From an uncultured Fusobacteriaceae bacterium (GTDB lineage Bacteria; Fusobacteriota; Fusobacteriia; Fusobacteriales; Fusobacteriaceae), in the NCBI GenBank assembly GCA_947038515.1, contig CAMQWJ010000001.1:62001-126000 (forward strand): a stretch of DNA of 64,000 nucleotides, in the 5' to 3' direction. Position 1 is the first letter of the stretch; each line of letters starts with the position of its first letter. Made by a program: the position numbers and the translations under genes. Below are positions 15,437 to 24,764 of this stretch, piece after piece. Below the pieces are notes generated by a model that worked only from the letters and a program-made list of their open reading frames with translations, was not told the origin of the DNA and ran no database searches.

Positions 15437-15823
15437 ATGAGAAAAATATTTTTTATTCTATTTACTTCAATCTTTGTTTCAGCATGTTCTTCTTCACAGT
15501 TAAGAACTAACAAATCTTACACAATGGTTTCACCATACTCCAACAACTCTTTATCCATTGTTTTTTTTAAAAACAAATTTTCTGGTCAATCTACAATCAA
15601 TAAATTTTCTGGTGATTATTCACTACGTGGAAATTCAATAATAATTAAGAATTTTCTACATACACAAGAGGTTGGCATTTTTTCTAAAACCCTTCAAGAA
15701 AACTATATTTTTGAAGTCCTTAAAAATGCAAACTCATTAACTATAACTGATAATGAAATAATATTACAGACAAATGATCAGAAACGTCTTAAGTATTATA
15801 CAGAACCTCTTTTATTTCATTAA
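15437..15823 (+). CDS. META-domain (HslJ-like) lipoprotein
   Basis: This 128-residue protein has a lipoprotein signal (MRKIFFILFTSIFVSAC, lipidated cysteine 17). It is followed by a small domain with the META/HslJ pattern: LSIVFFKNKFSGQSTINKFSGDY, IIIKNFLHTQEVG, and a C-terminal ITDNEIILQT. It is probably anchored in the inner or outer membrane and its function is unknown. Homologues in E. coli are heat-inducible. It is the only plus-strand gene between two minus-strand blocks, and its stop codon overlaps the stop of the converging barrel-protein gene. AGGAGA precedes the ATG. Confidence 0.75.
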   Translation: MRKIFFILFTSIFVSACSSSQLRTNKSYTMVSPYSNNSLSIVFFKNKFSGQSTINKFSGDYSLRGNSIIIKNFLHTQEVGIFSKTLQENYIFEVLKNANSLTITDNEIILQTNDQKRLKYYTEPLLFH

Positions 15824-16776
15824 AAAATATGTGCTATTTTAAGTCCATAAATTGTATTTTCACTTCTTTTACTATATCTTCCTGTAACTTCAAGTGAAAG
15901 TAGCATATCCTTTGATAAATAATAACCTAAAGATAGTGAACTTGTAATATATTCATTATCTTTTTTTTGTGTTCCTAAGTTTTCTATACTATTCCAACTA
16001 TAAATATTTTTATCCATACCATTAGAAATTTCACCTGTATATTTAGTATTTAATGACAATCTAACTTTATTTTTATCGTAAACATAGTAAAAACCAATAT
16101 TTCCTCTACCTATATTTATACTTTCCTTTTCATACCAATAATTTTTTTTAGAATCTTTCTCTCGAAAACTTCCACAATATTCTAATGAAATATAAGGATA
16201 AATAAAAGTATTTTTATTTAATGGATAAACTCTTCCTAGTTCAGTACCTACACTTAAGTTATTTCTATCTTGTCTCCCAACCCCATCTTTGGCTGTACTA
16301 TGCGAATATCCTAAGTGAGTAAATGCCACATTTCTATCATTTAGTACTGCAAAGTAGATATTTCCACCCATTGTTTTCATTTTATCACTTTGATCAGGAT
16401 TTTTATATTTAATTTTAGACTCTAAATATCCTAAAGAAACTCCTGTAATATATTTCCTTTGAGGTGTTTTATCAGATTTTTTTAATAAACTTGTTGTTCC
16501 AATTACAATACCTTTTGTACTACTATTAAACCCTGAAAAATTGTTCCCCCCATCTGTATTTCCTTCTCCATAAAAGCTCTCTATGTGCTGTTCACTACCT
16601 GATATGCCCTTTTCTCGATCTAATACTTCACTCAATAACCCTTCACGGATATAATTTTTTCCTTTTTCGTTAATAATATCACTATCAATAACATCTAAAT
16701 TATTATTCAGTATCTGTGCTTGAGTAATTATAGAAAATAAAAGCCACATAACGCCAACTATATAATTTTTTTTCAT
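15820..16776 (-). CDS. Putative outer-membrane beta-barrel protein (autotransporter-barrel-like)
   Basis: This 318-residue protein has a signal peptide (MKKNYIVGVMWLLFSIITQAQ) and a short variable N-terminal region with Gly/Ser/Asn. About 210 residues of alternating amphipathic strands follow, such as YITGVSLGYLESKIKY, NLSVGTELGRVYPL, GNIGFYYVYDKNKVRLSLNTKY and SSLSLGYYL. It ends in a phenylalanine (KIAHIF), the outer-membrane barrel sorting mark. There is no long passenger, so it may be a free-standing barrel or a shortened autotransporter. AAGGAG precedes ATG 16776. Its leader carries a 9-bp tandem repeat. The specific function is not recognised. Confidence 0.7.
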   Translation of the reverse strand: MKKNYIVGVMWLLFSIITQAQILNNNLDVIDSDIINEKGKNYIREGLLSEVLDREKGISGSEQHIESFYGEGNTDGGNNFSGFNSSTKGIVIGTTSLLKKSDKTPQRKYITGVSLGYLESKIKYKNPDQSDKMKTMGGNIYFAVLNDRNVAFTHLGYSHSTAKDGVGRQDRNNLSVGTELGRVYPLNKNTFIYPYISLEYCGSFREKDSKKNYWYEKESINIGRGNIGFYYVYDKNKVRLSLNTKYTGEISNGMDKNIYSWNSIENLGTQKKDNEYITSSLSLGYYLSKDMLLSLEVTGRYSKRSENTIYGLKIAHIF

Positions 16777-16802
16777 TTTTTCTCCTTACTAAATAAAACA
16801 AT

Positions 16803-16854
16803 CTTTATTTACTTTATTTACTTTATTTACTTTATTTACTTTATTTACTTTATT
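16803..16854 (-). repeat. 9-bp tandem repeat (5.8 copies) in the leader of the barrel-protein gene
   Basis: The unit CTTTATTTA (plus strand) repeats five times without error, then a sixth partial copy of 7 bases. The array begins immediately downstream of an extended -10 box on the minus strand and ends 26 bp before the ATG at 16776, so it should form most of the 5' untranslated region. Copy-number change by slippage would alter the leader length in steps of 9 nt. Confidence 0.9.
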
Positions 16855-16863
16855 AGTATAACA
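16855..16863 (-). promoter_or_regulatory. Extended -10 promoter of the barrel-protein gene
   Basis: On the minus strand the sequence TGTTATACT is an extended -10 element. A good -35 is not seen at 17 nt. Transcription would begin at about 16848, within the first copies of the 9-bp repeat. Confidence 0.5.
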
Positions 16864-16961
16864 TAAAAAAATGTCGAAATAAACCTCTTATTTTACTTTT
16901 ATCTCTATGATTTCTTTTTTATATTTATATATATTTTTTTTGCTATTTTTCAAATAAAAAA

Positions 16962-16979
16962 AGAGCCCTTTAAGGCTCT
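16962..16979 (-). terminator. Terminator of the cold-shock gene
   Basis: AGAGCC and GGCTCT form a 6-bp stem with a 6-nt loop, 8 nt after the csp stop codon. On the minus strand it is followed by seven T residues. This is a short but classical Rho-independent terminator. Confidence 0.85.
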
Positions 16980-16986
16980 AAATTTA

Positions 16987-17184
16987 CTAGTTAGATTCGA
17001 TATTTGTAGCTTGTGGACCTTTAGCACCATCAGTAACATCAAAAGTAACTGATTCACCTTCTGTTAACTTTTTGAATCCTTCTTTTTGGATTTCTGAGTA
17101 ATGAGCGAAAACGTCTTTCCCGTCCTCTGCAGTTATAAATCCAAATCCTTTCTCTTCGTTAAACCATTTTACTGTACCTTTCAT
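16987..17184 (-). CDS. Cold-shock domain protein (CspA family)
   Basis: This 65-residue single cold-shock domain binds single-stranded RNA/DNA and acts as an RNA chaperone. Both RNP motifs are present, KGFGFI (RNP1, residues 12-17) and VFAHY (RNP2). The [17 protein letters not shown] start is diagnostic. GGAGG lies 7 nt before the ATG. It has its own promoter, a roughly 120-nt leader and a terminator, so it is a single-gene transcript. Confidence 0.98.
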
Positions 17185-17318
17185 TGTAAACCTCCGTAAT
17201 AATAACTTTCTAATGATCTAAATTTCAAATTTAATATTAATATGAAGGTGATTTAAAATCAAACCTCAACCATTAAAATAAAAACTCTTAATTCATAAAC
17301 ATTGATTAACTAATTATA
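17185..17318 (-). promoter_or_regulatory. Cold-shock gene promoter and long 5' leader
   Basis: A TATAAT -10 box (17313-17318, minus strand) has no clear -35. The predicted start near 17306 gives a leader of about 120 nt. Long structured leaders are typical of cold-inducible csp genes, where they control mRNA stability and translation. I see no strong single hairpin here, so temperature-dependent control is an inference from the length only. Confidence 0.55.
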
Positions 17319-17901: not shown

Positions 17902-19122
17902 TTAAATTACTATAGTTAATATATTTTCACCTATTTCTTGCTCATTTCTCTTTGTTTTCTTCTGATTTTCTAAAATCCAGTTAAAAATAAATTTAGCATG
18001 TTGCTCTGTTGTTCTAACACATTTTCTAGTACCACTATATGTACCTAGATTTCTCTCTTTCGCTTTTAATGCTGATCGTCTATATTTTTCTTCTAATTTC
18101 CCTATTGGAGTCCCATGCAGATATGCTCCACCAGTAAATCTGGTTGCAAATTTTGCAGTTCCACCATCTTCTGCCACAGGACTATTATACCACATTGTAT
18201 ATTTTGTCATTGGAGCTAAATAATATCCCTTTGGTGTTTCAAATCCTAATTTACTATCGTCTCCCGTCTTACTATAAACATAAGAAATAACATTCCACTC
18301 AGAATTAATTTTTTCAAATAACATAAGATTTTGATTAGTCGCATCTATAATTATTGCTTTTTTTAATTCTCCCACTGATAGTTTTGTTGCAGATTTAAGA
18401 TTTCGATTCTCAACTATAAAATACTCTTCTGGATACCAAGAGGCTTTTATTTTTGAAGTTCTCTTATTTTTTTCTATCAATTTTATTATTGAGCTATCTG
18501 GAAGATGTATCACTTGATTCTTATATTTTGCTCTTATATTTTGATCTAGTGCTACTCCATATTTATCTTTTTTTCTTAGCATATTTTCATTATTTGGATT
18601 TGGAACATATGAATTAACCACTAATAATTTTTCATTATTTTTATTCGCTTCATTTATAAAGTTTTCTAATTTAACAATTTCTTCCTTAGCTTCCTTAAAT
18701 TTAAAAGTTCTAAAAACAACAACCTTACCATAAACATATCCAACTTCTCCAGTAGGTAGTTCTACTTTATACCATACAAGTGTATAATCTTTAACTTTCC
18801 CCAAGACTTTAAGTCTTTGACGATATTTAACTTTCTTTATTACTTTACTTTTCGAATTAGGTAATTCTCTAATACTAGCAGCTGAAGTTCTTACAAATAC
18901 ATAATCTAGAAGCTGAGGATGTCCCCCTTTATACTTTTCATGAAACTTTACTGTTTCAGGAATTTCATTTAAATAAGTTTCCTCATAACTAAACTTGCTA
19001 ATAGGATCAATATTTTCATTTACTATTTCTTCCACTACTACCACATCTATTTTTTCTTTTGGTTCAACAGAACTACACCCCATCACTAAAATTAATAATC
19101 CAAATAATAACCCTTTTTTCAT
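17902..19122 (-). CDS. L,D-transpeptidase (YkuD-type) lipoprotein with SH3-like domain
   Basis: A 406-residue lipoprotein (signal MKKGLLFGLLILVMGC, Cys16). Residues about 75-130 look like a bacterial SH3 domain (SIRELPNSKSKVIKKVKYRQRLKVLGK, then GEVGYVYGKVV). The C-terminal part is a YkuD/L,D-transpeptidase domain beginning KKAIIIDATNQNLMLFEK. It has the catalytic-histidine segment HGTP (His336) and the nucleophile in KCVRTTE (Cys368). The usual SHGC tetrad is altered to TRKC, and the His-Cys spacing (32) is longer than normal. It may cross-link or modify peptidoglycan. A longer frame runs back through the tRNA gene; ATG 19122 with GGAGG upstream is the real start. Confidence 0.85.
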   Translation of the reverse strand: MKKGLLFGLLILVMGCSSVEPKEKIDVVVVEEIVNENIDPISKFSYEETYLNEIPETVKFHEKYKGGHPQLLDYVFVRTSAASIRELPNSKSKVIKKVKYRQRLKVLGKVKDYTLVWYKVELPTGEVGYVYGKVVVFRTFKFKEAKEEIVKLENFINEANKNNEKLLVVNSYVPNPNNENMLRKKDKYGVALDQNIRAKYKNQVIHLPDSSIIKLIEKNKRTSKIKASWYPEEYFIVENRNLKSATKLSVGELKKAIIIDATNQNLMLFEKINSEWNVISYVYSKTGDDSKLGFETPKGYYLAPMTKYTMWYNSPVAEDGGTAKFATRFTGGAYLHGTPIGKLEEKYRRSALKAKERNLGTYSGTRKCVRTTEQHAKFIFNWILENQKKTKRNEQEIGENILTIVI

Positions 19123-19139
19123 CTTTCCTCCATATTTTC

Positions 19140-19215
19140 TGGTGCCATCTACTGGAATCGAACCTGTGACCTCTACCTTACCATGGTATTGCTCTACCAA
19201 CTGAGCTAAGACGGC
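19140..19215 (-). tRNA. tRNA-Thr (anticodon GGT)
   Basis: The cloverleaf can be drawn directly. The 7-bp acceptor pairs GCCGTCT with AGATGGC (one G-T), followed by discriminator A and an encoded CCA. The D-arm has GCTC/GAGC around AGTTGGTA. The anticodon loop ATGGTAA gives GGT, decoding ACC/ACT, and the T-loop is TTCGATT. Two mismatches are present: A-G at pair 27-43 of the anticodon stem and A-A in the middle of the T-stem. They make the tRNA slightly irregular but do not prevent folding. It ends 17 nt before the ATG of the L,D-transpeptidase gene, with no terminator between. Confidence 0.92.
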
Positions 19216-19226
19216 TTTTAGCATTT

Positions 19227-24377: not shown

Positions 24378-24764
24378 TTATTGAGCTACATTATTCGAAG
24401 TATAATTTCTTTTCATTCTTTCAATACGATGAGTTGATCTTAGTCTAGAAAGTTCTGAATCTAAGGCTTCTACTCTTGTCCAATCAACATTATTTTCTGA
24501 TATTAATTTTCTAATTTCTAATTCTTTTTCTTGAATTACTACTGAATTTTTTCTATTTTCTCTAATTTCTGAATCTGTTAAATTTCTACCATTATTCATG
24601 TGTCCATTCATTCCATCATAATTCCCTCTATGTTGACCATTTCTTCCACCACAATTCCCTCTATGTTGACCATTTCTTCCACCATGATTTCCTCCATGAC
24701 CATATCCATTTGCAAATCCTATTGCTGATATTGCTAATAAACCTACTATTAATATTTTTTTCAT
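24378..24764 (-). CDS. Small secreted Gly/His/Asn-rich protein, possibly Spy/CpxP-like
   Basis: This 128-residue protein has a clear signal peptide (MKKILIVGLLAISAIGFANG). Residues about 21-60 are rich in Gly, His, Asn and Arg, with an 11-residue block around GGRNGQHRGN occurring twice. The C-terminal half is charged and helical (LTDSEIRENRKNSVVIQEKELEIRKLI, then ALDSELSRLRS), reminiscent of periplasmic Spy/CpxP chaperones. The His-rich part could bind metal ions, but that is a guess. GGAGG lies 7 nt before ATG 24764, so the longer frame to 24812 is rejected. Function is not recognised. Confidence 0.75.
   Translation of the reverse strand: MKKILIVGLLAISAIGFANGYGHGGNHGGRNGQHRGNCGGRNGQHRGNYDGMNGHMNNGRNLTDSEIRENRKNSVVIQEKELEIRKLISENNVDWTRVEALDSELSRLRSTHRIERMKRNYTSNNVAQ
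24621..24686 (-). repeat. 33-bp in-frame tandem duplication inside the Gly/His-rich protein gene
   Basis: The segments 24621-24653 and 24654-24686 are identical except for the last two bases. The unit is a multiple of three, so it adds 11 residues per copy without breaking the frame. Confidence 0.9.

What the first reader, a model, noticed from the sequence alone, without database searches (positions are those of the whole stretch)
16803..16863. Slippage-prone 9-bp repeat array at the transcription start of an outer-membrane protein gene
Five perfect CTTTATTTA units plus a partial copy lie directly between an extended -10 box and the ribosome-binding site of a predicted beta-barrel protein. 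Comparable arrays in promoters or leaders of surface proteins in Haemophilus and Moraxella cause phase or graded variation. Here the array should be transcribed from its first copies, so copy number would change leader length and the initial transcribed sequence, not the promoter spacing.
Basis: partly seen in the sequence, partly recalled or inferred. Interest (0 to 1): 0.6.

Follow-up and report, generated by a model that had tools for sequence, protein, structure and literature searches.

The report
Expanded 9-bp repeat in mRNA leader
A fusobacterial outer-membrane barrel gene carries an unusually long, perfect 9-letter DNA repeat in the untranslated start of its messenger RNA; it could let copy-number slippage change how much protein is made, as in some respiratory pathogens, but neither variation nor an effect has yet been shown.

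Summary
(CTTTATTTA)5.8 occupies 16803-16854. It is the longest perfect array of units of 12 bp or less in the whole 1.78-Mb genome, and it is far beyond chance. It lies on the minus strand, just downstream of TGTTATACT (16863-16855) and 26 nt before the ATG of a 318-aa protein. That protein matches Pfam Autotransporter and is modelled as a helix plus a 12-strand barrel without a passenger.

The extended -10 is kept in the two congeneric orthologs, which have the same convergent lipoprotein neighbour. Neither has the array, so it is a lineage-specific expansion of the 5' UTR (predicted about 72 nt, against about 32-43 nt in the orthologs).

Because the units are identical, the first transcribed bases stay the same for any two or more copies; only leader length changes, 9 nt per copy. 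It can pair with the repeats and, in folding, keeps the start codon free once at least one copy is present.

The closest known case is Haemophilus hmw1A, a 7-bp repeat in the 5' UTR. No second strain was available, so variation and effect are untested. This is a plausible new member of a known kind.

The parts
16855..16863 (-). Extended -10 promoter element TGTTATACT (-10 hexamer 16860-16855); weak -35-like TTTATT 17 nt upstream
   Evidence: TGTTATAAT kept in both congeneric orthologs L010 and L011; sense-strand enrichment of TGnTATAnT upstream of genes in this genome, 132 against 63 antisense and 32 in shuffles
16848..16854 (-). Partial first repeat AATAAAG; predicted transcription start at its 3' end (about 16849-16848)
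   Evidence: start placed by the usual 6-7 nt from the -10 (inference)
16803..16847 (-). Five perfect TAAATAAAG units (CTTTATTTA on the + strand), in the predicted 5' UTR
16790..16798 (-). Inverted copy of the unit (TTTTATTTA); can form an 8-9 bp AU hairpin with the last repeats, ending 2 nt before the Shine-Dalgarno
   Evidence: chance of such an 8-mer in the 26-nt spacer about 0.005 by shuffling
16782..16787 (-). Shine-Dalgarno AAGGAG
15820..16776 (-). 318-aa outer-membrane protein: signal-like N terminus, helix 27-51, 12-strand autotransporter-type barrel, no passenger
   Evidence: Pfam PF03797 E 5.8e-12; AlphaFold model mean pLDDT 69.8, pTM 0.72; Foldseek to EstA, Hbp, EspP, NalP, BrkA translocators, E 4e-13 to 5e-10
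15437..15823 (+). Convergent META-domain (HslJ-like) lipoprotein; the same convergent pair is in both congeners, which supports orthology
   Evidence: Pfam PF03724 E 1e-8; synteny in L010, L011, L044
16962..16979 (-). Intrinsic terminator of the upstream cold-shock protein gene; separates it from the barrel gene
   Evidence: the only terminator-like site in 15700-17300; 0.2 expected

Best explanation
The array is a recently expanded, slippage-prone minisatellite in the 5' UTR of a passenger-less autotransporter-type barrel gene. Transcription starts at the end of the partial first copy from a promoter that the array does not touch. Gain or loss of a copy lengthens or shortens an A/U-rich, nearly unstructured leader by 9 nt, without changing promoter spacing, the first transcribed bases or the reading frame. 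If copy number varies in nature, its most likely effect is a modest graded change in mRNA level or translation, as with the hmw1A 5'-UTR repeats, rather than an on/off switch. Shown here: the array, its position, its absence from orthologs, promoter conservation and the barrel. Inferred: transcription start, slippage, any effect.
For: The array is non-random and unique in the genome. All 5.8 units are identical, which suggests recent or continuing turnover (inference). The orthologous locus in two congeners keeps TGTTATAAT but has no array. The upstream gene ends in a terminator, so this is a separate transcription unit. F. nucleatum promoters have a pronounced -10 and a weak -35, with median 5' UTR 39 nt (PMC11005410), which fits the promoter call and marks this leader as long. 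The nearest copy-number hint for the same unit is two near-identical tandem flagellin leaders in another Fusobacteriaceae genus, with one and two TAAATAAAG units. Repeats in the hmw1A 5' UTR change transcript and protein in graded fashion (PMC8262952, PMC2424069).
Against: No second strain was available, so variation was not seen. Five to six copies is few compared with hmw (9-28 copies). Predicted Shine-Dalgarno and AUG accessibility is almost flat from one to five copies, so folding gives no reason for a graded effect. The transcription start is predicted, not mapped. The barrel has no recognised adhesin passenger, so the benefit of varying it is unclear.
Confidence: 0.45

Rival explanations
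1. Neutral microsatellite: a chance slippage expansion of an A-rich leader in an AT-rich genome. It may vary in length but has no selected effect on expression.
For: Genome is 28% GC with A-rich leaders; congeners do well without the array; it is the only such leader array in the genome, so there is no sign of a general contingency-locus strategy; SD and AUG accessibility is flat from one to five copies.
Against: It is far the longest such array and happens to sit in the leader of a surface protein, in the position known for hmw1A; but this is a single case, chosen after the fact.
Confidence: 0.37
2. Decoy hairpin: the inverted copy UUUUAUUUA upstream of the Shine-Dalgarno can pair with the A-rich start-codon region; repeat units pair with it first and keep the start codon free. 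One unit suffices and extra units are redundant, so loss of all units would turn translation down.
For: Inverted copy at 16798-16790; shuffle chance about 0.005; predicted AUG unpaired 0.77-0.84 with one to five units but 0.17 with none.
Against: Stems are all A-U and weak (-2.9 to -4.0 kcal/mol). The hairpin itself lies within the ribosome footprint. Nothing comparable was recognised in the ortholog leaders. The inverted copy may be a by-product of AT-rich sequence.
Confidence: 0.12
3. The array acts as DNA: a multi-site protein-binding or bent-DNA element, or an upstream element for a second, downstream promoter.
For: AT-rich direct repeats; a similar A-rich period-9 tract precedes the pta gene elsewhere in the genome.
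Against: No -10-like hexamer between array and start codon; unit length of 9 is out of phase with the helix; the conserved promoter lies upstream of the array.
Confidence: 0.05

Closest known systems
Haemophilus influenzae hmw1A/hmw2A 7-bp (heptanucleotide) repeats
   Same: Perfect short tandem array downstream of the active promoter, in the 5' UTR of an outer-membrane or surface protein gene; variation changes 5' UTR length (PMC8262952)
   Different: 7-bp unit and 9-28 copies against 9-bp and 5.8 copies; variation and graded expression are demonstrated there and not here; different phylum and protein
Moraxella catarrhalis uspA2 AGAT repeats and the gor octanucleotide (GACTGTTT) array
   Same: Upstream non-coding arrays of a few to about 20 units; uspA2 copy number changes transcript level and the 8-bp array varies from 2 to 17 copies between strains (PMC7302503)
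   Different: Unit, protein and organism differ; variation is shown there
Type Va autotransporter translocator domains (EspP, Hbp, NalP, BrkA, EstA)
   Same: Helix followed by 12-strand barrel; Pfam PF03797
   Different: Only about 45 residues lie between the signal-like segment and the barrel, so there is no passenger domain

Membership tests
hmw1A-type 5'-UTR repeat contingency locus | Perfect short tandem repeat array beyond chance | tested here: met
hmw1A-type 5'-UTR repeat contingency locus | Array lies between the transcription start and the start codon | tested here: inconclusive
   Promoter predicted and conserved upstream of the array; 5' end not mapped
hmw1A-type 5'-UTR repeat contingency locus | Gene encodes a surface or outer-membrane protein | tested here: met
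hmw1A-type 5'-UTR repeat contingency locus | Copy number varies between strains or within a culture | not testable with these tools
   One genome of the species held; the two congeners have no array
hmw1A-type 5'-UTR repeat contingency locus | Expression depends on copy number | not testable with these tools
   Folding predicts almost no change in SD or AUG accessibility from one to five copies
Type Va autotransporter | 12-strand barrel with N-terminal helix | tested here: met
Type Va autotransporter | Secreted passenger domain | tested here: not met
   318 aa in all; barrel with helix spans 27-317

The most novel reading that the evidence does not exclude
A repeat/anti-repeat leader switch: an inverted copy of the unit next to the Shine-Dalgarno can occlude the start codon, and the tandem units act as redundant decoys that keep it free. 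Slippage would then protect or abolish translation in a threshold manner, unlike hmw1A or uspA2.
Probability: 0.1. Interest if true: 0.6.

Novelty: new member of a known kind. Interest (0 to 1): 0.36.

Why it matters
Slippage-driven variation of surface proteins is well studied in Haemophilus, Moraxella and Neisseria but hardly in Fusobacteriota. One paper notes that phase variation has only been suggested for fusobacterial autotransporters and that none has been shown for the trimeric ones (PMC6346709). This locus gives one clear, cheaply testable candidate, and it separates leader length from promoter spacing and from initial transcribed sequence.

Tried and rejected
Other copies of the array: none in the genome. 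A second Fusobacteriaceae genus has three related units before a flagellin gene. An order-level relative (G078) has an exact match, but inside a coding sequence. None in viral contigs. General period-9 AAAG signal in leaders: lag 9 is raised but weak, confounded by wrongly placed start codons and codon periodicity, so not used. A 301-base DNA search of relatives gave only AT-rich noise. Second promoter downstream of the array: no suitable -10. Rfam: no match to the array or leader. CsrA control: the window genome has no CsrA. Two genome-contig scans gave two named relatives only. Species name not established; the family is Fusobacteriaceae.

Full report
Observation. The window holds 5.8 perfect copies of CTTTATTTA at 16803-16854. 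On the minus strand, which is the sense of the neighbouring gene, the order is: TGTTATACT (16863-16855), AATAAAG, five TAAATAAAG units (16847-16803), a 26-nt spacer ATTGTTTTATTTAGTAAGGAGAAAAA containing the Shine-Dalgarno AAGGAG (16787-16782), and ATG at 16776. I read the whole draft genome (1.78 Mb, 28% GC, 23 contigs) as stretches and scanned it for perfect arrays. This is the longest with a unit of 12 bp or less. Only 20 arrays of at least three copies with units of 4-60 bp exist. The longest run of lag-9 matches is 43 bases, against at most 16 in ten order-3 Markov genomes. No other copy of the array exists in the genome.

Gene. The 318-aa product matches the Pfam Autotransporter beta-domain (5.8e-12, residues 67-269). 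A profile of its relatives weakly matches the EspP, Hbp and OmpX barrels in the PDB. An AlphaFold model from three sequences (mean pLDDT 69.8, pTM 0.72) shows a helix at 27-51 and twelve strands. Foldseek places it with the EstA, Hbp, EspP, NalP and BrkA translocators. There is no room for a passenger. The gene is single-copy.

Orthologs. Two other species of the GTDB genus have a 30-35% identical protein beside the same convergent META-domain lipoprotein, so the loci are orthologous. Both keep TGTTATAAT upstream, and neither has the array. From the -10 to the start codon they have roughly 40-50 nt, against 78 nt in the window. More distant relatives in the genus that includes Fusobacterium mortiferum lie mostly downstream of a membrane-protein gene without this promoter. 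The array is therefore a lineage-specific expansion within a conserved promoter-leader unit. The upstream cold-shock gene ends in an intrinsic terminator at 16979-16962, so the barrel gene is its own transcription unit.

Promoter. The -35 is weak and the consensus scan does not list the site. F. nucleatum promoters have a pronounced -10 and a weaker -35, and a median 5' UTR of 39 nt (PMC11005410). TGnTATAnT is twice as frequent on the sense strand upstream of genes as on the antisense, and four times the shuffled level (gene calls are rough). With conservation in the orthologs, the call is good but the transcription start is not mapped.

What copy number can change. With the start near 16849-16848, the leader is about 72 nt. 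Promoter spacing and reading frame are also untouched. What changes is leader length, by 9 nt a copy. I folded native 3' substrings of the leader, which equal shorter arrays. The Shine-Dalgarno stays free throughout (0.91-0.97). The start codon is 0.77-0.84 free with one to five units and 0.17 with none, because an inverted copy of the unit at 16798-16790 then pairs with the A-rich start region. With units present, the inverted copy pairs with the last one or two. Above one unit, little changes. Folding therefore does not predict a graded effect; it predicts at most a threshold.

Related arrays. In another Fusobacteriaceae genus (G042), two tandem flagellin genes have near-identical leaders with TAAAAAAAG units followed by one and two TAAATAAAG units respectively. 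This is the nearest thing to observed copy-number change of this unit, but it is in other genes, and the promoter there may lie elsewhere.

Comparison with the known. In hmw1A the 7-bp repeats lie downstream of the only active promoter, so they change 5' UTR length; more repeats give less transcript and protein, and the step involved is unresolved (PMC8262952; PMC2424069). Moraxella uspA2 and gor have upstream arrays that vary between strains (PMC7302503). I found no report of simple-repeat control in Fusobacteriota in the held library, only the remark that phase variation of fusobacterial autotransporters has been suggested (PMC6346709). The held library is open-licence only, so this is not proof of absence.

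Verdict. It is a likely new member of a known kind.

Noticed in passing
L138-L165 flagellin leaders (G041, G042, G047, G048): In 61 Fusobacteriaceae genomes, flagellin (PF00669) and CsrA (PF02599) occur in exactly the same four genomes. Their flagellin leaders carry GACAAGGATGTC or GGCAAGGAAGCC hairpin motifs plus CAAGGAGGAT, like the double CsrA site of the Bacillus subtilis hag leader (the B. subtilis comparison is from memory).
   Followed up: partly
L126 leaders of the two tandem flagellin genes: Two near-identical flagellin leaders differ in the number of TAAATAAAG units (one against two).
   Followed up: partly
window 19140-19215 and 17902-19224: tRNA-Thr(ggt) overlaps the 5' end of the mechanically listed 440-aa L,D-transpeptidase ORF, so its true start is probably the later MKKGLL methionine.
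   Followed up: yes
window 16959-17293: Cold-shock protein gene with a sub-threshold Rfam cspA thermoregulator match (36 bits against 78); probably mainly coding similarity.
   Followed up: no
window 24604-24698: 33-bp repeat (2.9 copies) coding for GGRNGQHRGN-like repeats in a small exported protein.
   Followed up: no
G000:C4:74628-74663: (AT)9 T19 tract 57 bp upstream of a gene whose product looks like a BglG-type regulator (recognised by eye, not searched); another slippage candidate.
   Followed up: no
G000:C11:48987-49061: 22-bp direct repeats (3.4 copies) upstream of an ORF that resembles a plasmid Rep protein by eye, on a contig with conjugation-like genes: probably iterons of a plasmid origin.
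   Followed up: no
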